A DNA stretch of 64,000 nucleotides from Cryobacterium shii (lineage in GTDB: Bacteria; Actinomycetota; Actinomycetes; Actinomycetales; Microbacteriaceae), in the NCBI RefSeq assembly GCF_004402595.1, contig NZ_SOFY01000074.1, positions 1 to 64,000 on the forward strand. Direction: 5' to 3'. Made by a program: the position numbers and the translations under genes. This document shows, in pieces, positions 10,579 through 47,623 of this stretch. The notes below the pieces were generated by a model. That model ran no database searches. It saw only the letters and a list, made by a program, of their open reading frames with translations, and had not been told where the DNA came from. Each line of letters starts with the position of its first letter. Position 1 is the stretch's first letter.

Positions 10579-10663
10579 AACCAATTCGACGGAGATTTTG
10601 ATCTCAGCGCGCGATTCCAGCCTGTTTCGGACCGTATTCGGCAGAATCTCCGTCGAATTGGTT
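10579..10663. repeat. REPIN-like hairpin element, family A copy 1
   Basis: Left arm 10579-10600 begins AACCAATTCGACGGAG; right arm 10642-10663 is its reverse complement with one mismatch in 22. The loop is 41 nt. It starts 10 bases after the ATPase stop. The loop read on the minus strand contains CGGTCCGAAACAGGC, which is shared in modified form with copy A3 and with family C. There is no T-tract. Copies A2, A3 and A4 lie at 27858, 42092 and 47540. Confidence 0.9.
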
Positions 10664-10770
10664 GGGGGCGGGGGGCCGGGGCCGGATCGAGGGGGCGGGG
10701 CTCGGGTGAGGAGTTGAGGCTCGGGCGCCGCGCGGCGACTCGGGACCGGCCGAAGGCTTAACCTGAGGTA

Positions 10771-12009
10771 ATGCGTGCACGATTCCGCCGCGGCGGCCCG
10801 ACCCCCGACGGTGTGACCCCCGGAGGGAGCCCGCGGCTGTCCCGCGAGGTGTACGTGCTCGGCGTGATCGCCTTCTTCGTGATGGTGGGCTTCGGTGTCG
10901 TCGTTCCGGTGCTGCCCGTGTACGTGCGCAGCTTCGGGGTCGGCAACCTGGAAATCGGGGCCGTCGTCTCCGCCTTCGCCCTGATGCGTTTCGTGTCCAG
11001 TCCCTTCACCGGGCGCATGATCGACTGGGCCGGCGAACGAGCCGTCCTGGCCACCGGGATCGGAATCGTCGCCGTCTCCAGCGGCCTGGTCGGCGTGGCT
11101 CAGAACTATCCCCAGCTCCTCCTGCTGCGCGGCGCCGGCGGCATCGGTTCGGCCATGTTCACCGTGGCGGCGATGACCCTGCTGCTCGGCTCCACCGCGC
11201 CCGGGATCCGGGCCCGCGCCATCGGATTCTACCAGGGCGGTTTCCTGCTCGGCGGGATGGCCGGCCCGGCCCTCGGCGGGCTGCTCGCCACGATCTCCCT
11301 CACCGCACCGTTCTTCTTCTATGCGGGCACCCTCTCCGTCGCCGGGTTCCTGGGCCTGGTCCTGCTGCGACCGGTGCGGGGCACGGGGCCGAAAACGGAT
11401 GCCGCACCGGCCCCGCGAGTCCCGTTCCGCACCGTACTGAAGGACGAGCGTTTCCGAGCGGCGTGCCTGGCCAGCTTCTCCACCGGCTGGACCTCGTTCG
11501 GTGTGCGCAACGCGCTGATCCCCGTGCTGGTGGTCGAGGTGCTCCGCGGGCCGACCGCTTGGACCGGCATCGCGTTCGCCTTCGCGGCCGTCGCGCAGAC
11601 CATCGCGCTCGCCCCGGCGTCGCGCTTCGTCGACCGGGTGGGCCGCCGGCCCGCCATCATCGGGGCGTTCCTGGTGGCCGGGCTGACCATCTTCGCCGTC
11701 CCGTTTGCGCCTGACATCGTGGTTCTCACCGGGCTGCTCTGCGTCTACGGGGTGGCCTCGGCGTTCATGGGCACCGCCCCGGCGGCCGCCGTCGGGGATG
11801 CGGCCGGGGCCGGCGGCGGGAGACCGGTGGCGGTGTTCTCGATGTTCTCCGACTTCGGCGCGATCATCGGCCCGCTCGTCGCCGGCTTCCTCGCCGACCA
11901 GGTCTCCTATCCGGTGGCCTTCGGCGTGGGCGCCCTGTTCTTCCTCGCGACCTCCGGCTACGCCGCCCTGCGGATGCCGCGAGGCACCCGCCTCCCTGAC
12001 GTCCCCTGA
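10771..12009 (+). CDS. Major facilitator superfamily transporter
   Basis: A 412-residue protein with about twelve hydrophobic helices. The MFS signature between TM2 and TM3 is seen as FTGRMIDWAGERA, and a second similar motif DRVGRRPAIIGAF lies in the second half, so this is a canonical two-bundle DHA1-like drug/metabolite:H+ antiporter. The cytoplasmic N-terminus is short, basic and glycine-rich. The ATG at 10771 is preceded by CCTGAGGTA. Substrate unknown. It stands alone between hairpin elements A1 and B1. Confidence 0.82.
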   Translation: MRARFRRGGPTPDGVTPGGSPRLSREVYVLGVIAFFVMVGFGVVVPVLPVYVRSFGVGNLEIGAVVSAFALMRFVSSPFTGRMIDWAGERAVLATGIGIVAVSSGLVGVAQNYPQLLLLRGAGGIGSAMFTVAAMTLLLGSTAPGIRARAIGFYQGGFLLGGMAGPALGGLLATISLTAPFFFYAGTLSVAGFLGLVLLRPVRGTGPKTDAAPAPRVPFRTVLKDERFRAACLASFSTGWTSFGVRNALIPVLVVEVLRGPTAWTGIAFAFAAVAQTIALAPASRFVDRVGRRPAIIGAFLVAGLTIFAVPFAPDIVVLTGLLCVYGVASAFMGTAPAAAVGDAAGAGGGRPVAVFSMFSDFGAIIGPLVAGFLADQVSYPVAFGVGALFFLATSGYAALRMPRGTRLPDVP

Positions 12010-12033
12010 CACCCGCTGACGCCCCGCGCGAGA

Positions 12034-12120
12034 CCCGCCGAACCGTGAGTTCCGCCCCGTTTTTTTGAATTTTGAGGAGCTTTAATCACGGCTCGGCGGG
12101 GCTCGGCGGGGCTCGGCGGG
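12034..12120. repeat. Hairpin element, family B copy 1, with GCTCGGCGGG triplication
   Basis: CCCGCCGAACCGTGA (12034-12048) and TCACGGCTCGGCGGG (12086-12100) form a 15-bp stem with one mismatch. The 3' arm end GCTCGGCGGG is then repeated in tandem three times (12091-12120). The loop holds a run of seven T. The outer arm and following GAGTTYCGCCCC are shared with the copy at 29865. It lies between the convergent MFS gene and ABC-2 permease gene, so it could also act as a terminator. Confidence 0.8.
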
Positions 12121-12198
12121 GCAAGACGGCGCAGGGCTGGGTGCGGTGGGGCAGCGCTGGGTAAGGCTCGGGGCGGGCGGGCGGGCGGGGCGGGCCGG

Positions 12199-12999
12199 TC
12201 AGGCCGCGATGTCCCGCCGACGGAACCCGAGCACGGCGAGCCCGAGGAGCACGGCGACGGTGGCCACGGCCACGAGCACGCTGGGGCCGTCCACGCCCTC
12301 CCGGAGCGGGTCGTGGCCAATGTACTGGTAGTACGGCGAGAGCTTCTGGAACGGATCGAGCCAGTCGACCAGGGGCGCCAGCGCGTTCACCACATAGGCC
12401 ACCACCGCGACGACGGCCGGGATGCCGCGGCTCAGCCCGGTCCTGCCGGTCGAGGCCGACAGCGTCAGGGCCAGGGCGCCGAAGACTACGCCGAGCAGCG
12501 CCAGGTGCAGCATGGCGGCGGCCACGTCACCGGCCGGGAGGTTCATGTCCGCGAACGACCCCAGGCCCACGAGGGAAACCCCGGTCACCGCCGCGAGCAG
12601 GAACGTGCCCAACGCCAGCGCGGTGAACTTCTCCAGGACGACCCGGGTGCGGCCGACCGGGTTGGCCAGCAGGAGGTCCATGGTGTGGTGGTCCTCCTCG
12701 CCGCCGATCACGGCCACACCCACGCCGATCGCGTAGACGAGCACGGCGATCGGGCCCATGAACGACAGGAGTTCGACCTGCACGTAGCCGACCGGGGTCG
12801 ACATGTCCGCGCCGGTCGCGGCGAACAGGTAGCGGAAGGCCTCGGGCATCTGCTTCAGGAAATCGCTCATCGACGGCTGGTCGCGCAGGCTCGGCCACAG
12901 GACCACATACATGCCGACCAGGAGCACCAGAGAGACCGACCAGCCGAGCAGACCTCGGCGCTGGTCGTACAGGGTCTTCGTGAACAGGCTAGCCAGCAT
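12199..12999 (-). CDS. ABC-2 type transporter permease
   Basis: A 266-residue membrane protein with six predicted helices and the ABC-2 pattern: an N-terminal TLYDQRRGLLGW segment before the first helix, a central GGEEDHHTMDLLLANPVGR cytoplasmic loop typical of antibiotic/polyketide exporters, and a C-terminal helix ending FRRRDIAA. It forms an exporter with the ATPase of 12989-13939, whose stop it overlaps by 11 bases. I chose the ATG at 12999 because GGTGAG is correctly spaced before it; the upstream extension to 13101 runs inside the ATPase gene. Substrate unknown. Confidence 0.85.
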   Translation of the reverse strand: MLASLFTKTLYDQRRGLLGWSVSLVLLVGMYVVLWPSLRDQPSMSDFLKQMPEAFRYLFAATGADMSTPVGYVQVELLSFMGPIAVLVYAIGVGVAVIGGEEDHHTMDLLLANPVGRTRVVLEKFTALALGTFLLAAVTGVSLVGLGSFADMNLPAGDVAAAMLHLALLGVVFGALALTLSASTGRTGLSRGIPAVVAVVAYVVNALAPLVDWLDPFQKLSPYYQYIGHDPLREGVDGPSVLVAVATVAVLLGLAVLGFRRRDIAA

Positions 13000-13939
13000 C
13001 GGTCTCACCGCCGTGTGTTTCGGTGACGGTGTCGGAGCCGGTGTCGCCCGGCCCGTAATAGCCGAGGAACGTCTCCTCGAGGTCGGTTTCGGCGCATTCA
13101 AAATCGATCACCGACCGGCGGGACACCTGTTTCAGCAGCGCATCGAGGGCGTACTGCGGCGCGCTGCAGCGAAGGCTCCGGTCGCCGATCGAGAGGTCCT
13201 GCACGCCCCGGATCCCGGCGAAATCCTCGGCCGACACCTCCTCCAGGAAACTCGCCCGAATCCGGTGCAGCGACCGGGCGCGGAGCTCCTGGAGCCGCTC
13301 GACGGCGATCAGCCGGCCGCGACGGATGACGCCGATCCGGTCGGCGACCCGCTGCACCTCCCCGAGCACGTGAGACGAGAACAGCACGGTGCCGCCGTCC
13401 CCGGTGTACTCGCCGAGCAGGGCGTGGAACTCCTGCTGCACGAGCGGGTCGAGACCGCTGGTGGGTTCGTCGAGGATCAGCAGCCGGGGCGCGGACATGA
13501 CCGCCAGCACGATCGCGAGTTTCTGCCGGTTACCGCGGGACAGCGTCCGCGCCGGGCGGCCGAGGTCGACGTCGAAGCGGGCGGCCAGAGCGGTGGCCTC
13601 GGCCCGGTCATCGCGGCCGCGCAGGTGATCGAAGAAGGCGATGTGCTGCCGGCCGGTGAGCCGGCCGTAGAGCGCCGATTCACCGGGAACGTACCCGACC
13701 AGGCGGTGCACCTCGACCGGTTGCCGCCACGAGTCCAGGCCGAAGACCTGCGCCTGGCCGGAGGTCGGACGGAGCATCCCCAGCAGCAGGCGGATCGTGG
13801 TCGTCTTGCCCGCGCCGTTGGGTCCGAGGTAGCCGAAGACCTCACCGGGCTCCAGGGTGAGGCTGATGCCGTCGAGAGCGACGCCCTCGCCGAACTGCTT
13901 CCTGAGCAGGGTCAGGCGAACCGGGGCGAGCTCGTTCAT
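12989..13939 (-). CDS. ABC transporter ATP-binding protein (drug exporter type)
   Basis: A 316-residue ATPase. Walker A is GPNGAGKTTTIRLL, the signature is the atypical LSRGNRQK, and Walker B is LLILDEPTSGLD, followed by the H-loop FSSHVL. A C-terminal extension of about 90 residues follows the ABC core, as in CcmA/DrrA-like subunits of ABC-2 exporters. The ATG at 13939 gives MNELAPVRLT directly before the fold; the longer frame needs a TTG and adds a non-conserved leader. It is translationally coupled to the permease downstream. Confidence 0.87.
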   Translation of the reverse strand: MNELAPVRLTLLRKQFGEGVALDGISLTLEPGEVFGYLGPNGAGKTTTIRLLLGMLRPTSGQAQVFGLDSWRQPVEVHRLVGYVPGESALYGRLTGRQHIAFFDHLRGRDDRAEATALAARFDVDLGRPARTLSRGNRQKLAIVLAVMSAPRLLILDEPTSGLDPLVQQEFHALLGEYTGDGGTVLFSSHVLGEVQRVADRIGVIRRGRLIAVERLQELRARSLHRIRASFLEEVSAEDFAGIRGVQDLSIGDRSLRCSAPQYALDALLKQVSRRSVIDFECAETDLEETFLGYYGPGDTGSDTVTETHGGETDAG

Positions 13940-14005
13940 GCGCCGAGCCTGCTCCGAACGGCCAGTCGCCGGAAGGGCCAATGGTCCCGGGCCGTGCGGA
14001 GGCGG

Positions 14006-14365
14006 TTAGCGCAGTTCCGCGCGGCCGGAGAGAACGCCGCTGAGCGTGGCGACGACGGCGAAGATCACACCGACCAGCGGGAGGCCGAGGTCCCACCAGG
14101 CCAGAGCTGCTGCTCCGAAGACGCAGATCTCGACCACGGCCTTGCCGAACGGGTCGAGCTTGAACACGGCCTTGGGGGAGCGGAACAGAGCCCAGAGCAG
14201 GATCGCGAAGGCCGGGGCGACGATGCCGACCACGACGCCGGGCCACGGCAGCGGCCACGCCGCGAAACCCCAGATGCCGAGGCTGATGAACGCGAACAGT
14301 TCGAGCAGGAATCGCAGGATGTCGTTGGGGCTGGTCTTCACGCTCGTATCGGTCACTTGCCCCAT
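14006..14365 (-). CDS. DUF2568 (YrdB-like) small membrane protein
   Basis: A 119-residue protein with four hydrophobic segments (around residues 16-34, 42-60, 75-92 and 95-112). The pattern LRFLLELFAFISLGIWGF and ALFRSPKAVF matches the YrdB/DUF2568 family of unknown function. It lies 20 bases after purU on the same strand and 66 bases before the ABC ATPase gene, so it may be in one transcript with purU. No catalytic residues are recognisable. Confidence 0.7.
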   Translation of the reverse strand: MGQVTDTSVKTSPNDILRFLLELFAFISLGIWGFAAWPLPWPGVVVGIVAPAFAILLWALFRSPKAVFKLDPFGKAVVEICVFGAAALAWWDLGLPLVGVIFAVVATLSGVLSGRAELR

Positions 14366-14385
14366 CTTACCGAGCAGGCGGGCGG

Positions 14386-15258
14386 CTACTTGAAGATGAT
14401 GGTGCGGGCACCGTCGAGCAGAACCCGGTGCTCGGCGAACCAGGTGACCGCCTGGGTCAGGGTGCGGCTCTCCTCGTCCTGCCCGATGGCGACGAGTTCG
14501 GCCGGCGTGCGGGAATGGTCCACGCGCACGACGTTCTGCTCGATGATCGGGCCCTCGTCGAGGTCGCCGGTGACGAAGTGGGCGGTGGCCCCGATCAGCT
14601 TCACGCCGCGGGCGTGGGCCTGCTTGTAGGGGTTGGCACCCTTGAACCCGGGCAGGAATGAGTGGTGGATGTTGATGGCGCGGCCCTCGAGCAGCGTGCA
14701 GAGCTCGGGGGAGAGGATCTGCATGTACCGGGCGAGCACGACCAGCTCGATGTCGTGCTCGTCGAGTGCCTCGATCACGCGCGCCTCGAAGGCCGCCTTG
14801 CTCGCGGCATCCGTCACCGGTCGGGACTCGAACGGCACCCCGTAGAACCCGACCAGGTCGCGCAGCGTGCCGTGGTTGCTGAGCACCAGGGGGACCTCGA
14901 TCGGGAGCTGCCCGCCGCGCTGGCGGAACAGCATGTCGTTCACGCAGTTGCCCGCCGTCGACGCGAGCACGAGGGTGCGCACCGGGCGCCCCACCACGTC
15001 GATGGCGGAATTCATCCTGAAGTGGGCGACGACGGGGGCGAGCTCCTGCTCGAGCTCCTCGCGCGGGGCGGGGGACTCCACCTGCAGGCGCATGAAGAAC
15101 CGGCCGGTGTCGGCACTGGCGAACTGCTGGCTCTCGGTGATGTTGCCCCTGGCGCGCACGATGGCACCGCTGACCGCGTGCACGATGCCCGGCTGGTCGA
15201 CGCAGACGAGGGTGATCACCCAGTGGTGGCGCGGGTTCGGCGACAGAGAAGAAGTCAT
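14386..15258 (-). CDS. purU: Formyltetrahydrofolate deformylase
   Basis: A 290-residue enzyme that hydrolyses 10-formyl-THF to formate and THF, balancing one-carbon pools and supplying formate for purine synthesis. The N-terminal ACT domain (about residues 12-85) begins HWVITLVCVDQPGIVHAVSG. The C-terminal formyltransferase fold carries VLASTAGNCVNDML, VLSNH, LARYMQILS and the catalytic region NIHHSFLPGFKGANPY with a following IGATAHFV and DEGPIIEQ. Length is normal for the family. With glyA and folD nearby it adds to a one-carbon theme. Confidence 0.93.
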   Translation of the reverse strand: MTSSLSPNPRHHWVITLVCVDQPGIVHAVSGAIVRARGNITESQQFASADTGRFFMRLQVESPAPREELEQELAPVVAHFRMNSAIDVVGRPVRTLVLASTAGNCVNDMLFRQRGGQLPIEVPLVLSNHGTLRDLVGFYGVPFESRPVTDAASKAAFEARVIEALDEHDIELVVLARYMQILSPELCTLLEGRAINIHHSFLPGFKGANPYKQAHARGVKLIGATAHFVTGDLDEGPIIEQNVVRVDHSRTPAELVAIGQDEESRTLTQAVTWFAEHRVLLDGARTIIFK

Positions 15259-15432
15259 CCGACTAGGTTACCGGCCTCTCTGGCCGCGCCGGCCACCCGT
15301 CGGCTAGGCTGGGACGTGGTCGGCGCAGCATGCCGGCCCCGGGCGCGCACGTCGGCGCGCAGCCGATCCGGACCGGCCCCGCGACGCGAGAGCGGCGGGC
15401 GCCACTGTTCTCGTCTGTGAGCCACAGCCACC

Positions 15433-16752
15433 ATGTCATTCACCGCGCCCATCACCCTGCCCCCGCTCGGCGACGGGCAGGGCCGCCCGGGGTCAACTCC
15501 CGGCCCCTTCCCCTGGGTCGGGCTGATCGCCCTCGCGGCCGCCGTTTTCCTGTCGGTGACCTCCGAGATGCTGCCGACCGGCCTGCTGCCGGACATGAGC
15601 CGGTCCCTCGGCGTCAGCGAGGCCCAGGTGGGGCTGCTGGTCTCCTGGTTCGCGTTCACCGTGGTGCTCACGAGCACCTCCCTGGCGCATCTGACCCGCC
15701 GGCTGCCGCGGCACGGCCTGATCGTGCTCGTGCTGGTCGTGCTCGCCGTCAGTAATGTGCTCACCGCGGTCGCCCCCAACTACGCGTTCATGGTGGGCGG
15801 CCGCATCCTCGGCGGCATGGCCCACGGCCTGTTCTGGGCCGTCGTCGGCGCCTATGCGGCGCATCTCGTGCCGCGGGAGCAGATCGGCCGGGCCGTGGCG
15901 ATCACGGTGTCCGGCGGCACCCTCGCGTTCGTGCTCGGCGTTCCGCTGGCCACGGCGGCCGGGCACCTCCTGGGCTGGCGGCTGTCGTTCATCGCGCTCG
16001 CCGTGCTGATGCTCCTCGGCGCCGTCGTCGTGTGGCGTTTCCTGCCGCACGTCTCGCACTACGGTGCCCGGCGCACGGATGCCGAGGCGACCGAGGCGAC
16101 CGAGGCTGCCGAGGCGGCCGCGCTCGCCGCGGCGGAACCCGCCGCCGTGCCCGCCCTCGAAACGGCCGCCGAACCGCGCCGCGACCCGACGATGCCAGCC
16201 GTGATCCTGCTCTGCTCGATCACGGCCCTGACGATGGTCGGGCACTACACCTTCTATACCTACATCGCCCCGTTCCTGATCGACGGGATGGGCGTGGACG
16301 GCGCGGCCGTCGCGCCGCTCCTGTTCGCGTACGGCATCGCCGGCGCGGTCGGGCTGGTCCTCTCCGGCACCGTGTTCGGCCCTCGGCCCCAGCTGGGACT
16401 GGTGATCGGCATCGCCGTCTCCGCGATCAGCGTCAGCGTCCTCGCCCTGTTCGCGTCGACGCTGCCGGTGGCCATCGGCGCCTTCGTGCTGTGGGGGCTG
16501 GCCTTCGGCACGCTGCCGCCGCTGCTGCAGACGCGACTGCTGCGCACAGCCTCGCGGCGCATCCGTGACACCGCGAGCGCCATCTACACCACCGCGTTCA
16601 ACGCCGGCATCGGCGGCGGCGCACTGCTGGGCGCCGCGCTGCTGAACACCGTGGGCATGCCCGCCGTGCCGTTGGCCTACATCGGCATCCTGTCGCTGGC
16701 GTTCGTGCTCGTCATCGTCAGTCACGCGGTCACCTGCCGCCGCGCCGTCTGA
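15433..16752 (+). CDS. MFS transporter, AraJ/chloramphenicol-efflux-like
   Basis: A 439-residue, twelve-helix MFS protein of the DHA1 sugar/drug efflux group (AraJ/CmlA-like). Characteristic pieces are EMLPTGLLPDMSRSLGVS in TM1, the GGRILGGMAHGLFWAVVG motif in TM4 and an AEAAHLVP-like loop. The central cytoplasmic loop is an Ala/Glu-rich low-complexity linker encoded by four 9-nt repeats (GAGGCGACC and variants) at about 16086-16121. The ATG at 15433 gives a normal start before TM1. Substrate unknown. Confidence 0.82.
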   Translation: MSFTAPITLPPLGDGQGRPGSTPGPFPWVGLIALAAAVFLSVTSEMLPTGLLPDMSRSLGVSEAQVGLLVSWFAFTVVLTSTSLAHLTRRLPRHGLIVLVLVVLAVSNVLTAVAPNYAFMVGGRILGGMAHGLFWAVVGAYAAHLVPREQIGRAVAITVSGGTLAFVLGVPLATAAGHLLGWRLSFIALAVLMLLGAVVVWRFLPHVSHYGARRTDAEATEATEAAEAAALAAAEPAAVPALETAAEPRRDPTMPAVILLCSITALTMVGHYTFYTYIAPFLIDGMGVDGAAVAPLLFAYGIAGAVGLVLSGTVFGPRPQLGLVIGIAVSAISVSVLALFASTLPVAIGAFVLWGLAFGTLPPLLQTRLLRTASRRIRDTASAIYTTAFNAGIGGGALLGAALLNTVGMPAVPLAYIGILSLAFVLVIVSHAVTCRRAV

Positions 16753-16812
16753 CCTATCCGGAGTGCGGGCGGAAGCCTAGGGTGAGGGCACCGAGCTGGA
16801 GGAGGCCCCCCG

Positions 16813-18179: not shown

Positions 18180-18221
18180 CCTGGCCTGAGCGTGACCTGA
18201 CCCGGGCGTGACCTGACCGGC
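18174..18221. repeat. Three 16-nt tandem repeats over the lipoprotein stop codon
   Basis: Units GCGTGACCTG(G/A)CC... start at 18174, 18190 and 18206. The first unit contains the stop codon TGA. It resembles in position, not in sequence, the 18-nt array at 1123-1176. Confidence 0.7.
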
Positions 18222-18252
18222 GCCGGCCGGTAACCGGCCCCGGCGCCCTCCG

Positions 18253-26278: not shown

Positions 26279-26304
26279 GACCCGAGGGCGCCTGCTAAGA
26301 TCGA

Positions 26305-26392
26305 GCCTGTCGCAACTGGCGTAGCACGAAAGATGGGTCACCATCGGGGAGCGACTGACACGGTTAGTGGCCGCACGCCTGGGCTACGACGA
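26305..26392 (+). ncRNA. ZTP (pfl) riboswitch upstream of glyA
   Basis: The conserved ZTP/ZMP-aptamer parts are in order: ACTGGCG within GTCGCAACTGGCG (from 26309), the closing strand GGGGAGCGAC (to 26355; GTCGC pairs with GCGAC), a variable linker, and the downstream hairpin strand CCGCACGCCTGGGC (26371-26384). This riboswitch class senses the purine-biosynthesis alarmone ZTP/ZMP and is known to precede one-carbon genes such as glyA. A possible expression platform is ACGACG/CGTCGT at about 26385-26410 followed by AAGGAG, which suggests translational control. Confidence 0.85.
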
Positions 26393-27857: not shown

Positions 27858-27939
27858 CGAATTCGACGGAGATTTCGCCTTAAAAACACGCTGACGGCAT
27901 CCGTCACCGGCGTGTCGGTCAAAATCTCCGTCGAATTCG
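27858..27939. repeat. REPIN-like hairpin element, family A copy 2
   Basis: CGAATTCGACGGAGATTT at 27858-27875 is the exact reverse complement of 27922-27939. The 46-nt loop contains its own small palindrome GACGGCATCCGTC at about 27893-27905. It lies between the co-directional glyA and folD genes, 124 bases after the glyA stop. The remainder of this 300-base gap (27735-28034) is GC-rich with no recognised gene. Confidence 0.9.
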
Positions 27940-30444: not shown

Positions 30445-30558
30445 GAGCCGGAGGCGCCCCGAGCATAACTCCTGCAGATTCCGCGAAACGGACCGAAACT
30501 CGGCCGAAAAGAGCCCCGGCCGACCAGATTGCAGGAGTTATGCAGAGGGTGCGCGTTG
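30445..30558. repeat. 114-bp direct repeat copy 1 with family C hairpin
   Basis: Exactly identical to 30693-30806. Inside it, GCATAACTCCTGCA (30463-30476) pairs with TGCAGGAGTTATGC (30530-30543). The loop has a second perfect 7-bp stem TCGGCCG/CGGCCGA. The sequence GATTCCGCGAAACGGACCGAAACTCGG in the loop aligns with the loop of family A copy 3, although the outer arms differ. Together C1, D1 and C2 fill the whole 378-base gap between the convergent ybaK-like and galK genes. Confidence 0.92.
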
Positions 30559-30565
30559 CTCCGTG

Positions 30566-30660
30566 TGGCTGACTCAGGAGAAACGGATGCCGCGGGCCGC
30601 CTCCGCCAGACATGCAGCGGGTGCAGAGGGTGGTCCCACCGGTTCTTCCTGAGTTAGCCA
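30566..30660. repeat. Hairpin element, arm family D
   Basis: TGGCTGACTCAGGA (30566-30579) pairs with TCCTGAGTTAGCCA (30647-30660) with one mismatch, and the pairing continues weakly inward (GAAACGG with CCGGTTC). Loop about 67 nt. It is sandwiched between the two copies of the 114-bp repeat, and its loop repeats the motif GCAGAGGGTG found at the 3' flank of both C copies. Confidence 0.8.
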
Positions 30661-30692: not shown

Positions 30693-30806
30693 GAGCCGGA
30701 GGCGCCCCGAGCATAACTCCTGCAGATTCCGCGAAACGGACCGAAACTCGGCCGAAAAGAGCCCCGGCCGACCAGATTGCAGGAGTTATGCAGAGGGTGC
30801 GCGTTG
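30693..30806. repeat. 114-bp direct repeat copy 2 with family C hairpin
   Basis: Perfect copy of 30445-30558 in the same orientation, offset by 248 bases. It ends 10 bases from the galK stop. The lack of any substitution points to a recent duplication or ongoing gene conversion. Confidence 0.92.
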
Positions 30807-30816
30807 GCCCGGGCGG

Positions 30817-31977
30817 CTACTCCGCGCGGCTTGCCCCGTCTGCGGCGTGCACCACGAACAGGTCCGGGGCCGTGAAACCGCGGGCCGCGAACGCGGCCGT
30901 GACCTCCGCCGTGACCCGGGGGATGAGCGAGCGCGGGGTGAGCGCGATCGCGGCCCCGCCGAATCCGCCGCCGGTCATGCGGGCGCCGATGGCCCCCGCA
31001 CCGCGCGCGGTTTCGACGGCGAGGTCGAGTTCGGGCACCGAGATCTCGAAGTCGTCGCGCATCGACACGTGCGAGGCGTCCAGGAGAGCACCGATCGCGG
31101 TCGGTCCCTGCTCGCGCAGGGTGCGCACGGTGTCGAGCACGCGCTGGTTCTCCGTGATGACGTGCCGCACCCGGCGGAGGGTCTCGTCGTCGAGCAGCTC
31201 GGCGGCCCGCGGCAGGTCGTTCACGGTGAGGTCCCGCAGGGAGGCGACGCCCACCATCCGGGCGCCCAGTTCGCAGGATGCCCGGCGCGAGGCATACCCG
31301 CCGGTCGAGTGCGCGTGGCTGACCCGGGTGTCGATGATCAGGAGTTCGAGGTCGGCCGGGGCGAAGCCGAGCGGGATCACCTCGGCGTCGAGGCTGCGGC
31401 AGTCCAGGAACACGGCGGCGTCGGCCTGGCCGAGCAGCGACGCCGACTGGTCCATGATGCCGGTCGGCGCGCCGACCGCGCGATTCTCCGCCAGCTGGCC
31501 GACCCGGGCAAGCACGCGCCGGTCGAGTCCGAGCTGCCAGAGGTCATTCAGGGCGACCGCGACCGCGCTCTCGATCGCGGCCGACGAGGAGAGCCCGGCC
31601 CCGATCGGCACGTCGGAGTCGATGAACACGTCGAAGCCGGCCACGACGGCCAGGTCCGCGCCGAACTGGCCGAGCGCCCAGGCCACCCCGAGCGGGTAGG
31701 CGGACCAGCCGGCCAGGTTCTCCGGCGTCAGGTCGTCGAGGGACAGCTCGACGGTCTCCTCGGCGAACGAACTCGCCACCCGCAGCAGGCGGTCCGGGCG
31801 CAGGGCCATCGCGACCACCGTGCGCCGGTCGATCGCGAACGGGAAGACGAAGCCGTCGTTGTAGTCTGTGTGCTCGCCGATCAGGTTGACGCGGCCCGGG
31901 GCCGACCACAGGCTGGCCGGCTGAGCGGCGAAGCGGCTCTCGAAGCCGGCGCGCACGGACTGGGCGAGGGCGCTCAT
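30817..31977 (-). CDS. galK: Galactokinase
   Basis: A 386-residue GHMP kinase that phosphorylates D-galactose to galactose-1-phosphate. Signature: PGRVNLIGEHTDYNDGF near residue 26, the ATP-binding PIGAGLSSSAAIE near residue 118, and the C-terminal GARMTGGGFGGAAI. The ATG at 31977 overlaps the galT stop (ATGA), indicating translational coupling. Upstream frame extension lies inside galT and is not used. Confidence 0.94.
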   Translation of the reverse strand: MSALAQSVRAGFESRFAAQPASLWSAPGRVNLIGEHTDYNDGFVFPFAIDRRTVVAMALRPDRLLRVASSFAEETVELSLDDLTPENLAGWSAYPLGVAWALGQFGADLAVVAGFDVFIDSDVPIGAGLSSSAAIESAVAVALNDLWQLGLDRRVLARVGQLAENRAVGAPTGIMDQSASLLGQADAAVFLDCRSLDAEVIPLGFAPADLELLIIDTRVSHAHSTGGYASRRASCELGARMVGVASLRDLTVNDLPRAAELLDDETLRRVRHVITENQRVLDTVRTLREQGPTAIGALLDASHVSMRDDFEISVPELDLAVETARGAGAIGARMTGGGFGGAAIALTPRSLIPRVTAEVTAAFAARGFTAPDLFVVHAADGASRAE

Positions 31978-38537: not shown

Positions 38538-38576
38538 GCTGCCCTCTCGTGACCGGACGGGGCCGGAAACAGACCC

Positions 38577-38606
38577 TTGCCATCGAGCTTAGTAACACCT
38601 TATTAT
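38577..38606 (+). promoter_or_regulatory. Candidate promoter of the amine oxidase gene
   Basis: TTGCCA (38577-38582) and TATTAT (38601-38606) are separated by 18 bases; TTATTA at 38600 gives 17. The A+T-rich stretch at 38590-38630 stands out from the surrounding GC-rich DNA. Confidence 0.5.
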
Positions 38607-38644
38607 TCTACAACCATAGGAAAACAGCCCCGGAAAGGGAAACC

Positions 38645-40558: not shown

Positions 40559-40679
40559 TCGCCGGTACCTGTTCCCGAGCCGGACCACTGGTGCCGTCAC
40601 ACCGGCAACAGTTGTCCGATTCGGCGGCACCTGCCCCGCACGGTTTCCTTCCCCGGCGCTGATCGGGCAGGGTGGGAGG

Positions 40680-42005: not shown

Positions 42006-42091
42006 GCCGCTGCCCTGGTCGCCCTGCGCTAGTCCTGCTCTGGCCGGGAGCCCGCCCGGTTCCCGGCGACTCCCCTGAACGACCCTGCCCT

Positions 42092-42176
42092 AACGAATTC
42101 GACGGAGATTTTGCCAAAATCGGCCCGAAACAGGCCCGATATCGTTTTTTACCGCAGAATTTCCGTCGAACTGGTT
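42092..42176. repeat. REPIN-like hairpin element, family A copy 3
   Basis: Left arm 42092-42113 (AACGAATTCGACGGAG...) pairs with 42155-42176, with four mismatches of 22. The loop contains CGGCCCGAAACAGGCCCGAT, an inner hairpin and the core shared with families A1 and C. The left arm could alternatively pair with the adjacent CAAAATC, giving a competing small hairpin. The right arm end is duplicated: GGTTACAGGCA occurs at 42173 and again at 42187. Confidence 0.9.
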
Positions 42177-42243
42177 ACAGGCACTTGGTTACAGGCAGTG
42201 ACCTGTCGGCCGACCGCAGCGGCGCAGCGGTGCTGGGGGGGCG

Positions 42244-42732
42244 TTACGCCGCCACGTCGAGCCGGGCCGGTGCCGGTCCGGGCAATCCGGGCGCGCCAGC
42301 GGAGATGCTCCGTGGTGCCATGGCTGCGGATCCGCGCCCGGCGGAGGCCGGTGCGGTGCCGACCACGCCGTCGTCCGGCACGCTCACGTCGCGGTCCAGG
42401 ATGCTGCCCGAGGCCACGCGTGCGCGCCGGCCGATGCGCACATAACTGCCCAGGCGCGCTCCGCTGCCGATGCCCGCTTCCGCGCCGACATGCACGTTCT
42501 GGCCGATGAACACCCGTGATCCGACTCGGGCGTCGTGGTCGATCCAGCTGCCCGGCCCGATCCACGCCTCCGGTCCGACCCGTGCGCCGCTTTCTACATA
42601 CGCCGTGCGGGACACGAACGCACCGGGGTGCACCCGCGCGTCGGGGGACACCAGGCCGTGCCCGTTGGCGTGGCGTCGGTACTTCGTCACGACGCCGGAC
42701 TCGATTTCAACTTCTTCATTCACTTTTCCCAT
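42244..42732 (-). CDS. Hexapeptide-repeat (left-handed beta-helix) protein
   Basis: A 162-residue protein with continuous hexapeptide repeats from about residue 28 to 115 (GAFVSRTAYVESGARVGPEAWIGPGSWIDHDARVG). This fold is shared by acyl- and acetyltransferases and carbonic-anhydrase-like proteins; no family-specific active site is seen, so the activity is unknown. The C-terminal 35 residues are Pro/Ala-rich and disordered. GGAGGT precedes the ATG at 42732 by five bases. Confidence 0.72.
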   Translation of the reverse strand: MGKVNEEVEIESGVVTKYRRHANGHGLVSPDARVHPGAFVSRTAYVESGARVGPEAWIGPGSWIDHDARVGSRVFIGQNVHVGAEAGIGSGARLGSYVRIGRRARVASGSILDRDVSVPDDGVVGTAPASAGRGSAAMAPRSISAGAPGLPGPAPARLDVAA

Positions 42733-42869
42733 CTGCGACCTCCTTCTGTCGCTGGTGCGGCTCTGGCCGCTCCATTGACGTGAAGTATGAAGGGGCTACC
42801 CGAGCGCTGACCGTGTCAACGCTGGGTGCGGGCCGGGAATTCCCGGGCAGAGCATCCGTGCGGGGCCGG

Positions 42870-44051
42870 TCAGGGTGCTGCGGGGGTCGTCTCCGCCGCC
42901 CGGGCCTGCTTCTTGGCTGCCCGGCCGCCCGCGAGTGCGGAGGCCACGACGGTGATGAGCGCCCCGAGGATCACGGCCGCCCCTTCGCCGGGCAGCAGCA
43001 GGTCTGACCGGGTGCCGATCGTCACGGCCGCGACGGGCACCCCGAGCTGGGCCGCGGACAAGACGCCGAGCGGGAGCTCCTGCCCGAGCAGCCGCGTGAC
43101 GATGTGGGCCAGCAGCGCCCCACCGCCGAGCAGCAGCCCCAGCAGGATCATCTGCGGATGGTCGACCAGGTCGAGCAGGTTGAGGGAAGCGCCGAGCCAG
43201 ACGAAGAACAGAGGCCCCAGGAATCCGTCCGCGAGGGCGAACAGCTGCCGGGCCAGCCGACGCGGCTCGCCGACCGCCGCGACCGCGAGTCCGAACGAGA
43301 AGCCAGCGAGCATGATCGACACATTGCGGTACACGGCGAGGGCGGCCATCGCGAACAGGGTGGCCAGCTGGAGCCTGAGTTCGAGGGCGAACTTGCGTTG
43401 CTCCGACAGATGGTGCACCGCGATCCGCGATCCGTTCCGCTCCAGCCAGGACAGCACCAGATACAGGGACAGGGCCGCGGCCGAGACGATGAGCGCGCCC
43501 AGGGCCGTGCGTGCGGCGTTGGGCGGATCGATCGCGAGGGGGAGCGCGATGATCGCGGCGATGTCGGCGACGGCCACCTGGGCCGTCAGCTGCAGGAGCG
43601 GGGTACCGCGCAGCCGCAGGGACTGCACGATCGGCAGTACCAGGACGGCGGACGACGACGCGATCAGCACGACGTACAGCGGGGCGTGCAGGGTGCCGAA
43701 CAGGGCGGCAATGCCGACGCCGAGGATGACGGCGGGAACCAGGACCAGGCCGGCACGGGCCACACCCGTACCGAGCGCGGAGCGAAGCTGCCCGTCCCGC
43801 ATAGGCACGTGGCTGCCGGCGACGAACATCATCAGGGCGAAGCCCACGTCCGCCAGGAAGGTGAGCGTCGGATCGGTCGGATCCACGAGCCGGAGCCCGG
43901 TCTGGCCCACGAGGATGCCGGCCAGCAGCTGCCCGAACATCACCGGCAGGCTCCACCGGCGGGGGATCGCCAGCAACGGGCCGAGCAATGCCACCACGGA
44001 GATGATCGCCAGCGTCTGGAAGGTCATCGCGAATTCCATCTCAGGTTGCAT
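42870..44051 (-). CDS. CPA2-type cation:proton antiporter
   Basis: A monovalent cation:proton antiporter of the Kef/NapA-like CPA2 group, with about twelve helices and up to 393 residues. Typical pieces are GPLLAIPRRWSLPVMFGQLLAGILVGQTGL, ALMMFVAGSHVPM and a C-terminal ALITVVASALAGGRAAKKQA. No C-terminal RCK or TrkA_N domain is present. The start is uncertain: in-frame ATGs at 44051, 44039 and 44027 are all weakly supported. The gene begins 17-42 bases beyond the tRNA-Lys on the same strand, so it may be expressed from the tRNA promoter. Confidence 0.8.
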   Translation of the reverse strand: MQPEMEFAMTFQTLAIISVVALLGPLLAIPRRWSLPVMFGQLLAGILVGQTGLRLVDPTDPTLTFLADVGFALMMFVAGSHVPMRDGQLRSALGTGVARAGLVLVPAVILGVGIAALFGTLHAPLYVVLIASSSAVLVLPIVQSLRLRGTPLLQLTAQVAVADIAAIIALPLAIDPPNAARTALGALIVSAAALSLYLVLSWLERNGSRIAVHHLSEQRKFALELRLQLATLFAMAALAVYRNVSIMLAGFSFGLAVAAVGEPRRLARQLFALADGFLGPLFFVWLGASLNLLDLVDHPQMILLGLLLGGGALLAHIVTRLLGQELPLGVLSAAQLGVPVAAVTIGTRSDLLLPGEGAAVILGALITVVASALAGGRAAKKQARAAETTPAAP

Positions 44052-44068
44052 GCCCCGAATGAAGAAAG

Positions 44069-44141
44069 TGGGCCCCGTCGGGCTCGAACCGACGACCCAA
44101 GGATTAAAAGTCCTTTGCTCTACCAACTGAGCTAGAGGCCC
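44069..44141 (-). tRNA. tRNA-Lys (anticodon UUU)
   Basis: A 73-nt cloverleaf on the minus strand. Acceptor stem GGGCCTC/GGGGCCC, D-arm with AGCTCAGTTGGTAGAGC, anticodon arm AGGACTTTTAATCCT with loop CTTTTAA (anticodon TTT, lysine), and T-arm CGACGGTTCGAGCCCGACGG-like stem with the invariant GGTTCGA. CCA is not encoded in the DNA. Normal features throughout. Confidence 0.97.
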
Positions 44142-44251
44142 GCGGTTAATAATGTACAGGGGATTGCCCGAGGGTTTTTCTCGGTACCGTGAGAGAACGT
44201 CCCGCAAGCGTCGAGACGGATGCGCCCACAGCGAACACACAGGAGGATGCG

Positions 44252-44881
44252 ATGGCCGAAGACTTCCACAAGCCGACCCAGTTCTCCGGCAGCAAATTCG
44301 AATCCTTCCAGGGGGGCGAGGACCCTGCGCTGATCAGCCGGGTCGCGCACGAAACGGCGCACGCTCTTCTGGCGCGCGTGCGCCGCGACCCTGACCCGGC
44401 CGTCGTGGATCGCCTCGTGGCCTACACCGACGAGCACGGCATCGACGCCGTGGCCGAGCTGTGGTCACGGGCGACGCCGCGCAGTCTCCCGGGCGCGCTC
44501 TGGCGGCTCTACCTGGTGCGGCTGCTGATCCGTCAGGATCCGGAAGGCACCGCGTTCCTGTACCAGCGCGGAACCGAGGTCACGGTCGCCATCGATCCGC
44601 TGGTCGCGGGCGCCGTGGCGCCCACGGGGCCGGGGGAGATCATCGCCCTGGCCGACCAGATCCTGCGGGGCATCTTCACCGGCGACTTCGCCGTGGCGCT
44701 GGACCGGGCGGCGGCGTTCTGCCGCGTCACCTCCGTCGGGTGCACGAGCATCGCCGACGACCTGGAGACGACGCAGCCGGTGCGGTCGACCGAACTCACC
44801 ACCCGCGCCCTGCGCTTCTCGACCACCGCGCAGGAGTTCGGTTCCTGCGCCCGGCTGTGGCGCAGCGAGTCGCTGGACTAG
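44252..44881 (+). CDS. Conserved hypothetical protein
   Basis: A 209-residue soluble protein I do not recognise with confidence. It has no signal peptide or membrane helix, an acidic, mainly helical middle (HETAHALLARVRRDPDPAVVDRLV and SLPGALWRLYLVRLL), and two cysteines near residue 160. AGGAGG lies five bases before the ATG at 44252, which makes the start and the coding status clear. It follows the tRNA-Lys on the opposite strand. Confidence 0.8.
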   Translation: MAEDFHKPTQFSGSKFESFQGGEDPALISRVAHETAHALLARVRRDPDPAVVDRLVAYTDEHGIDAVAELWSRATPRSLPGALWRLYLVRLLIRQDPEGTAFLYQRGTEVTVAIDPLVAGAVAPTGPGEIIALADQILRGIFTGDFAVALDRAAAFCRVTSVGCTSIADDLETTQPVRSTELTTRALRFSTTAQEFGSCARLWRSESLD

Positions 44882-44917
44882 ACGAATTCGCCGGCCGCGT
44901 CGTTTACACTGGATCCT

Positions 44918-44997
44918 GGTCGGGCCGCAGTAACCCCGGGCTCCAATATTCGCCGCTTTGAGCGGCCTCGCGCCGAGAGGCGTTCTGCGGCCCGGCC
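44918..44997 (+). ncRNA. Candidate structured RNA upstream of sigK
   Basis: GGTCGGGCCGCAG (44918-44930) pairs with CTGCGGCCCGGCC (44985-44997) over 13 positions with one G-U pair. Between the arms are two more hairpins: GCCGCT-TTG-AGCGGC (44952-44966) and CGCC-GAGA-GGCG (44971-44982, a GNRA tetraloop). The result is a three-way junction. A TACACT -10-like hexamer at 44905-44910 would start a transcript within a base or two of the first stem. I cannot match it to a known riboswitch or to SRP RNA; it may be a free small RNA or the leader of sigK. Confidence 0.5.
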
Positions 44998-45093
44998 TTC
45001 ACTCGTCCTCCCCGCGGTCTGCGGTCGCAATCGTGACCAATCCGATCCGGACTCGGCCCCGAACCTCAGTCATGGAACGGGAAAAGACCTGAC

Positions 45094-45690
45094 ATGCTTG
45101 TTCTCATGACTGCTGACTTCGACTTCGACCTAGAGTCGACGGTCCCGGAATCCAAGGAACAACTCCTCGGCCGGGTGGCGCGGGGGGACGAAGCGGCGTT
45201 CGGCGAGCTGTACGACCAGATGGCACCACGCGTGCTGGGTCTGGTCAGACGGTTGCTGGTCGATCCCGCCCAGTCGGAAGAGGTGACCCAGGAGATCTTC
45301 CTGGAAATCTGGCAGTCGGCGACACGGTATGAGGTTCAGCGTGGCGGCGCCTCGACCTGGATTCTGACGATGGCGCACCGGCGCGCCGTCGACCGGATCC
45401 GGTCGTCGCAGGCCAGTCGCGATCGTGACACGAAGATCGGCATCCGCGACCTCGCGGTCGCCTACGACGAGGTATCCGAAACAGTGGAAGTACGGCTCGA
45501 GCACGAAAGGGTGGAGAAGGCGATGTCCAGATTGACGCAACTGCAACGTCAGGCGATCAGCCTCGCCTACTACGGCGGCCTCAGCCAGAGTGAAGTGGCC
45601 GAGCGGTTGCAGATCCCGCTCGGAACGGTGAAGACGAGGTTGCGAGACGGCATGATCCGGCTGCGCGACGAATTGGGCGTGGCGTCATGA
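45094..45690 (+). CDS. sigK: ECF sigma factor, SigK type
   Basis: A 198-residue extracytoplasmic-function sigma factor. Region 2 (GELYDQMAPRVLGLVRRLLVDPAQSEEVTQEIFLEIW...STWILTMAHRRAVDRIR) contacts core RNA polymerase and the -10 element; region 4 (QRQAISLAYYGGLSQSEVAERLQIPLGTVKTRLRDG) binds the -35. The stop overlaps the anti-sigma start by 4 bases. Both ATG 45094 and ATG 45106 are possible starts; neither has a clear Shine-Dalgarno. The 213-base region upstream includes the candidate RNA at 44918. Confidence 0.9.
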   Translation: MLVLMTADFDFDLESTVPESKEQLLGRVARGDEAAFGELYDQMAPRVLGLVRRLLVDPAQSEEVTQEIFLEIWQSATRYEVQRGGASTWILTMAHRRAVDRIRSSQASRDRDTKIGIRDLAVAYDEVSETVEVRLEHERVEKAMSRLTQLQRQAISLAYYGGLSQSEVAERLQIPLGTVKTRLRDGMIRLRDELGVAS

Positions 45691-46619
45691 GCGAGAACAC
45701 CCGCCAGAACGGCGTCGAACGCGGCGACAACCCGGGCGACCTGGCCGGCGCCTACGCCCTGAACGCGCTCGGCGCTGACGACGCCGCCGCCTACGAGGGG
45801 CACCTCGCCGAATCGGAGCAGGCCCGGATTGAGGCTGCCGAGCTCGGCGACACCGCCGTCGCGCTGGGTCTGGCCGCGGCGCCCGTGCAGCCCACCCCGG
45901 GGCTGAAGGCCTCGCTGATGGCCAAGCTCGCGGCGACACCCCAGCTGCCCGCGCTGGCCGGTCCGGCGGCTGCGGTCGCTCCGGTCGCTGCCCCGCAGGC
46001 CGAACCGGGCGCGACCGAGGCCGCCCGGCCCGAGACGCTTAAGCCCGCTCAGACGAGGCCTGAGACGACGAAGCCCGAGACGACGGATGCCCCCGCGCCG
46101 GCCCCCGCGACCGTGACCCCGATCGGCGGGGCGGCCGCGCAGCGGGCCCGCAGCCGCTGGTTCCAGCGCCCGGTCGGACTCCTGCTGGCCGCCGCAGCGG
46201 CCGTGGCGCTGTTCGTGGCCGGCGGATTCGCCGGGCAGGCCTTCAACACGAACCAGTTCGAGCAGCAGCAGGCCGCCGGCCTGGCCCAGATCAACGCCGC
46301 CCCGGATTCGCAGCGGGCGTCGACGACCACGGCCGACGGGCATCCGGCCACCCTGGTCTGGTCCAGCGAGCGCCACCTTTCGGCGCTGCTGGTCGACGAC
46401 CTGCCGTCCCTGCCCTCCGACAAGGACTACCAGCTCTGGTACATCGGGGGCGACGGCGCGGTCCCGGCGGGCACCTTCGACTCCTCCGGCGCGGGCACCG
46501 TCTGGCGCGTGCTGGACGGCAGCATGACGGCGGGAGACACGATCGGCGTCACCGTGGAACCCCGCGGCGGCTCCCGTCAGCCCACCACCGACCCGATTGT
46601 CGCCATCCAGAGTTCCTGA
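45687..46619 (+). CDS. rskA: Anti-sigma-K factor RskA
   Basis: A 310-residue single-pass membrane protein. The N-terminal sigma-binding region (DLAGAYALNALGADDAAAYEGHL) resembles anti-sigma domains that lack a zinc-binding site. A long Ala/Pro-rich linker follows, then one transmembrane helix at about residues 165-187 (VGLLLAAAAAVALFVAGGFA) and an extracytoplasmic RskA domain (SSERHLSALLVDDLPSLPSDKDYQLWYIGGDGAVPAG). It would sequester SigK until regulated proteolysis. Start overlaps sigK (ATGA). Confidence 0.9.
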   Translation: MSENTRQNGVERGDNPGDLAGAYALNALGADDAAAYEGHLAESEQARIEAAELGDTAVALGLAAAPVQPTPGLKASLMAKLAATPQLPALAGPAAAVAPVAAPQAEPGATEAARPETLKPAQTRPETTKPETTDAPAPAPATVTPIGGAAAQRARSRWFQRPVGLLLAAAAAVALFVAGGFAGQAFNTNQFEQQQAAGLAQINAAPDSQRASTTTADGHPATLVWSSERHLSALLVDDLPSLPSDKDYQLWYIGGDGAVPAGTFDSSGAGTVWRVLDGSMTAGDTIGVTVEPRGGSRQPTTDPIVAIQSS

Positions 46620-46640
46620 CGCATCGTTTATGCTCGGCGT

Positions 46641-47528
46641 ATGACACTGCCATTCACGCTGCTGATCGACCCGGTTCCGGCCGATTCACCCCGCACGGAT
46701 TTCAGCGACACGTTCCATGAAGTGAACTCCGACGCGCCCGCCCTGCGCGTGGACGACCTCAGCGCCCAGCGCGGGGACGGGATCTTCGAAACCCTGGGGT
46801 TCATCGACGGGTCCCCGCAGGAGGTGGGACCGCACATCGGTCGGCTCTGCAACTCCGCCGAGATCTGCGAGTTGCCGGCGCCCAACGTCGCCCAGTGGTT
46901 CGCCGCGATCACGCATGCCATGGAGCGGCTGCCGCGCACGGGCGAGATCGCGCTGAAGATCGTGCTCAGCCGCGGGGTCGAACCCGGTCCGGTCGCCACG
47001 GCCTGGCTGCAGGCGACCGCGGCGCCCGACTTCGGGCCCGTCCGCACGGATGGCGTGCGCGCGGTCACGCTGGACCGCGGCTATCCGCGGGGCGTGGCCG
47101 AGCAGGCCCCGTGGCTGCTGATGGGGGCCAAAACCCTCAGCTACGCGGTGAACATGGCGGCGCTGCGGGAGGCGAAGCGCCGCGGCGCCGACGACACGAT
47201 CTTCCTCACCCATGACGGGTTTGTGCTGGAGGGCCCCACCTCGAGCGTCGTCATCCGGTCCGGCGGGGTCTACGTCACGCCGGTGCCGAGCGGGGCCATC
47301 CTGCACGGAACGACCCAGCAGAGCGTCTTCGAATACCTGCAGGCGGCCGGGGAGCGCACGGAGTACCGTGACCTGACCGCCCCGGAGCTGCGGGCGGCGG
47401 ACGCGGTCTGGCTGGTGTCCAGCATCCGGATGGCCGTGCACGTCACCGAACTCGACGGGCAGTCCCTGCCGACCGACCCGGAGCGCACCCTCGCCCTGAA
47501 CCGGCACCTCCTGGCCCGCACCACCTGA
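46641..47528 (+). CDS. Class IV aminotransferase / aminodeoxychorismate lyase
   Basis: A 295-residue fold-type IV PLP enzyme. The order of elements matches PabC and related branched-chain aminotransferases: RGDGIFETLGF, an Arg-rich middle, GAKTLSYAVNMAALREAK with the PLP lysine, and EGPTSSVVIRSG phosphate-binding loop, ending with SIRMAVHVTELDG. Aminodeoxychorismate lyase, forming 4-aminobenzoate for folate, is the most likely activity given the one-carbon context, but a D-amino acid or branched-chain aminotransferase is possible. A family A hairpin begins 12 bases after the stop. Confidence 0.82.
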   Translation: MTLPFTLLIDPVPADSPRTDFSDTFHEVNSDAPALRVDDLSAQRGDGIFETLGFIDGSPQEVGPHIGRLCNSAEICELPAPNVAQWFAAITHAMERLPRTGEIALKIVLSRGVEPGPVATAWLQATAAPDFGPVRTDGVRAVTLDRGYPRGVAEQAPWLLMGAKTLSYAVNMAALREAKRRGADDTIFLTHDGFVLEGPTSSVVIRSGGVYVTPVPSGAILHGTTQQSVFEYLQAAGERTEYRDLTAPELRAADAVWLVSSIRMAVHVTELDGQSLPTDPERTLALNRHLLARTT

Positions 47529-47539
47529 GCCCCGCCCGA

Positions 47540-47623
47540 ACCAATTCGACGGAGATTCTGCTCCCACGGGGCCGGATCAGGCGATTTTGGCGCGTTTTGG
47601 CCAAAATCTCCGTCGAATTCGTT
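47540..47623. repeat. REPIN-like hairpin element, family A copy 4
   Basis: Left arm 47540-47561 (AACCAATTCGACGGAG...) pairs with 47602-47623, with mismatches near one end. Outer GCCCGAAC/GTTCGGGGC flank extends the stem. Its loop contains GGGCCGGATCAGGCG, a relative of the core in A1 and A3, and GATTTTGGC at about 47583 that can pair with the right arm GCCAAAATC as an alternative fold. Located between the convergent pabC-like and pstB genes. Confidence 0.9.

What the first reader, a model, noticed from the sequence alone, without database searches (positions are those of the whole stretch)
10579..47623. A family of about 85-bp REPIN-like hairpin elements in intergenic DNA (family A, four copies)
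Four elements, at 10579-10663, 27858-27939, 42092-42176 and 47540-47623, share inverted arms containing TTCGACGGAGATT and a loop of about 40-46 nt. All are intergenic, and two start 10-12 bases after a stop codon. The loops vary but keep a core (see next finding). Inverted pairs of a ~20-nt unit spaced by ~40 nt is the geometry of REPINs, which are dispersed by RAYT transposases in Gammaproteobacteria. I know of no such family described in Microbacteriaceae, and no transposase is in this window. They lack T-tracts, and one sits between co-directional genes, so a simple terminator role does not explain them.
Basis: partly seen in the sequence, partly recalled or inferred. Interest (0 to 1): 0.78.

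Follow-up and report, generated by a model that had tools for sequence, protein, structure and literature searches.

The report
Curved inverted-repeat DNA elements in Cryobacterium
Some Cryobacterium and related bacteria carry about a hundred copies of a short DNA element, mostly between genes, whose two matching ends sit at a fixed distance on DNA built to bend; it looks like a docking site for a protein that has not been identified.

Summary
The host is a Cryobacterium: 116+122 exact arms genome-wide (0 for the reversed control) and 122 core pairs. The family is patchy: 27 of 57 genus genomes hold an exact arm, a few other Microbacteriaceae genera hold core pairs, and 362 sampled genomes of other families in the order hold none.

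It is not shown to be a REPIN: no Y1/RAYT transposase in 15 element-rich genomes and no covarying pairs in the spacer. Instead, spacing is fixed (73-74 bp, rarely +10) and the spacer, though its sequence is free, keeps A/T tracts every 10 bp (power 6.2 vs 1.0 shuffled). In orthologues the A/T-versus-G/C class of a column persists while bases change. That points to selection on bending of double-stranded DNA.

A copy inside the xylB coding region keeps its arms in 6 of 30 genomes read, so transcription termination cannot explain the family.

Best reading (0.5): a pre-bent site gripped at both arms by an unidentified protein. The protein, the wrapping and the role are inferred.

The parts
10579..10663 (.). 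Element 1; 13-mer arms 10585-10597 and 10645-10657, 73 bp arm to arm; both outer ends of the AACCAA type
   Evidence: tandem gap, 10 nt after a stop codon (P-type ATPase gene upstream, MFS gene downstream)
27858..27939 (.). Element 2; arms 27862-27874 and 27923-27935, 74 bp; both outer ends of the G type
   Evidence: tandem gap between serine hydroxymethyltransferase and folD-type genes; same gap occupied in L086 and L026 with unrelated spacers
42092..42176 (.). Element 3; arms 42098-42110 and 42158-42170 (right arm one mismatch), 73 bp; AACGAA end on the left
   Evidence: after a DUF445 gene; same gap occupied in G039/L031 with a poorly matching spacer
47540..47623 (.). Element 4; arms 47545-47557 and 47605-47617, 73 bp; AACCAA end on the left
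   Evidence: convergent gap after an aminotransferase class IV gene; element at the same gap in G039, G050, G012, G025; remnant in G056

Best explanation
Each element is a double-stranded DNA site for a sequence-specific DNA-binding protein, not primarily an RNA or single-strand hairpin. Two inverted copies of a ~20-bp recognition site (core CGACGGAG, usually followed by ATT; the outer 6-8 bp differ between lineages) are held about six helical turns apart, on one face, by a spacer selected for A/T tracts every 10 bp. The DNA is therefore pre-bent, so a multimer gripping both arms can loop or wrap ~85 bp. The elements spread in the past as small insertions (one into a coding linker) by an unidentified, non-RAYT route, and are now kept at individual loci as long as the protein is present. 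Their placing just after stop codons and in convergent gaps suggests an architectural or topological role like that of BIMEs, or merely that insertions are tolerated there. Shown: copy number, position, spacing, phasing, class-preserving substitution, near-intact arms at flank-found sites including a coding one. Inferred: the protein, the wrapping, the role.
For: Arm-to-arm length 73 in 51, 74 in 7, 82-83 in 3 of 61 own elements, i.e. +10 bp jumps; 24 of 29 same-gap pairs have equal lengths. Spacer identity only 0.42 on average in 84 oriented elements, yet A/T power at 10 bp is 6.24 vs 1.04 shuffled in 131 spacers, none in flanks. In 22 pairs, a G/C base in an A/T column has an A/T partner in 68% of cases vs 11% in a G/C column, and 58 of 118 substitutions in G/C columns are C<->G vs 7 of 110 in A/T columns. 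Predicted bend 46.9 degrees vs 23.1 with shuffled spacers and 19.4 for window pieces (wedge angles recalled). Same core, same spacing and stronger phasing in another genus, G155, with a different outer arm. At two sites found by their flanks, nine other-genome copies have 7 mismatches in 234 arm bases. One copy is inside xylB in six genomes; three genomes with low copy number have it decayed.
Against: No binding protein was found; neighbour genes give no candidate shared across genera. Phasing is weak in G382 (5 elements) and absent in G111 (2). Patchiness, the insertion in xylB and same-gap elements with unrelated spacers (only 11 of 29 pairs reach the 95% null point) fit a mobile element equally well. 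Spacers have a slight self-folding excess (mean z -0.52 against class-preserving shuffles). Arm conservation is measured partly on loci picked by their arms; one search also required the outer 8 nt of each arm to match.
Confidence: 0.5

Rival explanations
1. A miniature mobile element (MITE-like) moved by an unknown double-strand transposase or recombinase: the ends, their helical phase and a bendable spacer are what the transposition complex needs, and there is no host role.
For: Patchy copy number within one genus, 0 to 136/128 exact arms; insertion in the xylB linker, absent in 19 of 30 genomes read; spacers within the own genome more alike than column shuffles allow (49 of 780 pairs at 0.65 or more vs 2.5 expected); some gaps hold elements with unrelated spacers.
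Against: No consistent target-site duplication in 152 elements; no transposase neighbour seen; arms stay near intact at flank-found orthologous sites; the only near-identical spacer pair among 40 own elements is a tandem duplicate.
Confidence: 0.27
2. REPIN proper: a single-strand hairpin element dispersed by a RAYT (Y1 HUH) transposase.
For: Geometry: inverted, highly conserved ends with a variable spacer of set length, as described for REPINs (passages of PMC3116915).
Against: PF01797 absent from the own genome and from all 15 element-rich genomes searched; no compensatory pairing in the spacer; helical phasing of A/T tracts.
Confidence: 0.05
3. Transcription terminators or 3'-end RNA-stability hairpins.
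For: Median 39 nt from a 3' end and 124 nt from a 5' end; convergent gaps 21 of 56, divergent 3 of 56, against 34 and 29 of 170 gene pairs.
Against: A copy inside the open xylB frame with near-intact arms in six genomes; arm sequence, not just pairing, is fixed; no stem extension into flanks; arms A/T-rich for a 69% G+C window.
Confidence: 0.07
4. Strong gyrase sites, as proposed for BIME-2.
For: The E. coli gyrase motif has helically phased G+C content and BIME-2 elements are enriched in gyrase cleavage sites (passages of PMC6379681); convergent gaps are enriched here.
Against: The E. coli motif is 130 bp with a non-periodic centre (-16 to 19) and 10.75-bp periodicity on both sides; here the centre is periodic and the flanks are not, and gyrase does not explain invariant, lineage-specific arms.
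Confidence: 0.09

Closest known systems
REPIN (REP doublet forming a hairpin), PMC3116915
   Same: About 100 copies, intergenic, two invariant inverted ends with a variable spacer of set length; tandem duplicates occur; ISs insert in the arms
   Different: No RAYT; no compensatory pairing in the spacer; spacer carries 10-bp phased A/T tracts; arms not seen as singlets in the own loci held except where an IS interrupts them
BIME / BIME-2 of enterobacteria (gyrase- or IHF-binding)
   Same: 3'-end and convergent-gap placing; a DNA-level, protein-binding role is plausible
   Different: Not a mosaic of REP units; fixed single architecture; phasing layout differs from the E. coli gyrase motif
CGTC-tagged REPs (PMC3733652)
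   Same: Arms contain CGTC; those REPs also lack a dedicated transposase and can lie inside genes (passages)
   Different: CGTC-REPs are 20-40 bp stem-loops with an unpaired CGTC at one end, reported from five phyla that do not include Actinobacteria; here CGTC is inside a ~20-bp arm whose partner is 60 bp away
MITE
   Same: Short, non-coding, terminal inverted repeats, at least one clear coding insertion
   Different: No target-site duplication and no parent transposon found

Membership tests
REPIN | Paired inverted, highly conserved ends with a spacer of set length, many copies, extragenic | tested here: met
REPIN | RAYT (Y1 HUH transposase) in the genome | tested here: not met
   PF01797: own 0; 0 of 15 element-rich genomes; control positive in 5 of 14
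REPIN | Spacer able to pair, with compensatory changes | tested here: not met
   No covariation at mirrored positions in 84 elements; weak self-fold excess z -0.52
CGTC-tagged REP | 20-40 bp stem-loop with an unpaired CGTC tag at one end | tested here: not met
   Arm is not a short stem-loop; CGTC lies within the paired arm (definition from passages)
MITE | Terminal inverted repeats | tested here: met
MITE | Target-site duplication of constant length | tested here: not met
   Best rows of the scan are 3-9 of 152 elements at 2-5 nt with scattered offsets
MITE | Related transposase with matching ends in the genome | tested here: inconclusive
   No neighbour candidate; unpaired exact arms in the own loci were IS-interrupted copies; whole proteome not searched
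Intrinsic terminator | Lies outside coding sequence, stem followed by T-tract | tested here: not met
   Coding copy in xylB; no shared T-tract in the flank profile
Gyrase site (E. coli motif) | Non-periodic centre flanked by two periodic regions over 130 bp | tested here: not met
   Periodic centre, non-periodic flanks; definition from passages
Gyrase site (E. coli motif) | Gyrase binding or cleavage | not testable with these tools
   Needs Topo-Seq

The most novel reading that the evidence does not exclude
A Microbacteriaceae-specific chromosome-organising system: a dedicated DNA-binding protein recognises paired CGACGGAG sites on pre-bent DNA, mostly at gene ends. The outer half of the site changes genome-wide between lineages as a dialect that co-evolves with the protein, and the sites decay once the protein is lost.
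Probability: 0.3. Interest if true: 0.85.

Novelty: new variant of a known kind. Interest (0 to 1): 0.66.

Why it matters
Small interspersed repeats in bacteria are usually read as hairpins moved by RAYTs or as terminators. This family shows selection on the helical phase and bending of double-stranded DNA between two fixed ends, a signature of protein binding that a pull-down can test directly and that could be used to find similar sites elsewhere. If the outer half of the arm is a lineage dialect, it offers a natural series for studying how a protein and over a hundred sites change specificity together.

Tried and rejected
RAYT: searched, absent. RNA structure: no covariation, no stem extension, only a weak self-fold excess. 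Excision scar AACSAATTSGTT: 0 in the 1,247,981 bases then held. Flipping of elements between species: none of 30 pairs passed my flag; one, L117/L085, leans that way (direct 0.27, inverted 0.51, end polarity reversed). Neighbour gene as trans-acting factor: among 361 neighbour genes the largest similarity clusters are ABC and MFS transporters, permeases and DUF222 proteins; clusters spanning genera were looked at by eye only; not every cluster was annotated. A gene with an element on each side in own and M96 loci is a GNAT acetyltransferase. Polarity against gene direction in tandem gaps: 26 vs 17, my count, not pursued. Viral contigs: 0. Rfam: no family at the elements. Literature: searches returned no paper, two unrelated titles, eight listed of ten with nothing on Actinobacteria, (arm strings) 15 listed of 65, none on bacterial repeats; the other 50 were not seen.

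Corrected on the way: the 99.4% arm identity and the 6.9% come from loci picked by exact arms and overstate conservation; I rely. In the named loci 97 of 113 elements found could be the ones that brought the locus in, and 11 of the 113 have arm mismatches, so decayed copies are rarer than intact ones but not absent. My first view that same-gap elements are always orthologous was wrong.
Full report
WHAT WAS CHECKED. The four elements are at the stated places. The own genome has 116 forward and 122 reverse exact arms against 0 for the reversed control, 99 pairs with one R/Y position allowed per arm and 122 pairs of the 8-nt core CGACGGAG/CTCCGTCG. If arms decay independently, 238 arms and at most 99 pairs imply roughly 140 elements with each 13-mer intact about 83% of the time; this is my arithmetic, and copies that lost both arms are invisible to it.

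DISTRIBUTION. In the relatives sample 27 of 57 genomes of the genus hold at least one exact arm, from a single hit to 136/128, and 0 of 43 genomes outside the genus do. With the shorter core pair, 112 of 398 Microbacteriaceae genomes have a match, mostly 1-4; listed low-count matches look like chance coding hits and the reversed control gives up to 2. Fourteen of 398 have 7 or more: own 122, G155 55, G378 38, G297 26, G248 22, G042, G382 and G437 17 each, G026 16, G410 15, G032 and G185 13 each, G405 9, G282 7. Outside the genus I read sequences of G155, G382 and G111 only. A stricter core pattern hit only the own genome among 396 genomes of the order, 362 of them from other families. Viral contigs: 0.

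ANATOMY. In oriented elements one end reads AACGAA and the other AACCAA next to TTCGACGGAGATT. The two ends differ at that position more often than chance (pairing 0.34 vs 0.49, z -4.1, 152 elements). Spacer orientation from mixture fitting agrees with this mark in 64 of 84 elements (one search prints 20 of 84; the label is arbitrary). Arm-to-arm length is 73 in 51, 74 in 7 and 82-83 in 3 of 61 own elements, which are about half of all, taken from the first rows of capped listings. In G155 the distinct elements held span 69 bp core to core in 14 of 15 and 70 in one, the Cryobacterium spacing, yet the outer arm is mostly ACTCAAAA; in G382 it is mostly CTGCACGAA with 70 bp (5 elements), in G111 CTGACCGAA with 69 and 70 (2 elements).

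SPACER. Mean identity is 0.42 in 84 oriented elements. A/T content still peaks every 10 bp: power 6.24 against 1.04 shuffled in 131 spacers, and nothing in flanks. G155 is stronger (9.6, ten spacers), the five G050 elements 3.4, G382 2.3 and G111 0.8. In 22 same-gap pairs of length 73, not all independent, a G/C base in an A/T column has an A/T partner in 68% of cases against 11% in a G/C column; 58 of 118 substitutions in G/C columns are C<->G against 7 of 110 in A/T columns. No excess of covarying pairs in the hairpin register was seen. Predicted bend is 46.9 degrees against 23.1 with shuffled spacers and 19.4 for 140 window pieces (wedge angles recalled). Together this points to double-stranded DNA that must bend and keep its two ends on one face.

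POSITION. Of 61 own elements 56 could be placed between two genes: 21 convergent, 32 tandem, 3 divergent, against 34, 107 and 29 of 170 gene pairs in the same loci; 1 is inside a gene and 4 at locus edges. Median distance is 39 nt to a 3' end and 124 nt to a 5' end. Named loci: 43, 45 and 7 of 95 placed, 2 inside, 14 at edges, of 111. Genes were called by a script of mine.

HISTORY. Twenty-nine pairs share a gap with both flanks alignable; the loci were picked for having elements, so this is not a rate. Spacer identity reaches the 95% null point (0.61) in 11 of 29; others have weakly or unrelated spacers, so some gaps were re-occupied or changed. At window site 4, 22 of 30 loci had both flanks: 5 carry the element (own, G039, G050, G012, G025), 1 a remnant (G056), at least 6 another hairpin family, the rest none seen. 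In G050 both arms changed together to GGAGTTT.

THE CODING COPY. One own element lies in an open frame between the two domains of a xylulokinase. Of 30 genomes' loci read there, 6 carry it (own, G005, G033, G050, G006, G022; 0 or 2 mismatches of 26, all 74 bp), 3 a decayed version (G026, G032, G054), 2 a single-arm remnant (G044, G051), 12 a 34-nt linker and 7 other linkers. A terminator cannot work there. Over both flank-found sites nine other-genome copies have 7 mismatches in 234 arm bases; the finder required the outer 8 nt of each arm, and decayed copies are not counted.

MOBILITY. PF01797 is absent from 15 element-rich genomes. No consistent target-site duplication appears in 152 elements. 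Within the own genome spacers are more alike than column shuffles allow (49 of 780 pairs at 0.65 or more against 2.5), but the only near-identical pair is a tandem duplicate. The elements thus spread from common sources, not recently, by an unknown route.

AN INSERTION SEQUENCE IN THE ARMS. At 6 of the 8 places where an IS end was found in the own genome I read the junction, and in all 6 the end abuts an arm at GAGATTYT or its complement, allowing one base change; one G025 and one G012 copy do too. Relatives of this IS encode an ISL3 transposase (PF01610). In other genomes copies sit in other, mostly A/T-rich spots. ISs of other families that target REPs are known (passages of PMC1525189).

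JUDGEMENT. The element has REPIN geometry and BIME-like placing but fails the tests for RAYT and spacer pairing. The best-supported reading is a pre-bent protein-binding site; a mobile element with a double-strand transposition complex is the main rival. The protein and the role are inferred, and no candidate was found. Papers were seen as search listings and passages only (PMC3116915, PMC3733652, PMC6379681, PMC1525189).

Noticed in passing
L153-L157 and L198 (own contigs C28, C52, C29, C43, C54, C56); L199 (G025); L201 (G012): An ISL3-family IS (end GGCTCTCCTG) sits at the same point of element arms in 6 of 6 own junctions read and in one copy each of G025 and G012; the arm is an insertion hot spot for it.
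   Followed up: partly
L161, L172, L168, L178, L184, L177 (gap corresponding to window 47529-47654): Other Cryobacterium species have different hairpin families in the same gap, e.g. CGCGAGAGTGCACTTTTCGCCC (G019, G052) and CGCGAGAGCGG (G011, G002, G007).
   Followed up: no
L098:775-2319 (own contig C20): Xylulokinase gene with the element as an in-frame coding insert next to a long alanine run; linker length varies strongly among relatives.
   Followed up: partly
L160 (G050, corresponding to window 47540-47623): Both arms carry the same change, GGAGTTT instead of GGAGATT, as if the two arms change together.
   Followed up: no
L003:445-1722, L112:153-1418: DUF222 proteins, one with an HNH domain, neighbour a few elements; a weak lead for an associated factor.
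   Followed up: no
L150 (own contig C59, elements at 7835 and 8047): Two elements with identical spacers 212 bp apart, a tandem duplication.
   Followed up: no
window 26302-26391: ZMP/ZTP riboswitch (RF01750) upstream of the serine hydroxymethyltransferase gene.
   Followed up: no
window 44069-44141: tRNA gene on the minus strand (RF00005).
   Followed up: no
window 148-211: Inverted repeat with 29-nt arms, 97% complementary, 6 nt apart.
   Followed up: no
window 30445-30570 and 30693-30818: Direct repeat of 126 nt, 97% identical.
   Followed up: no
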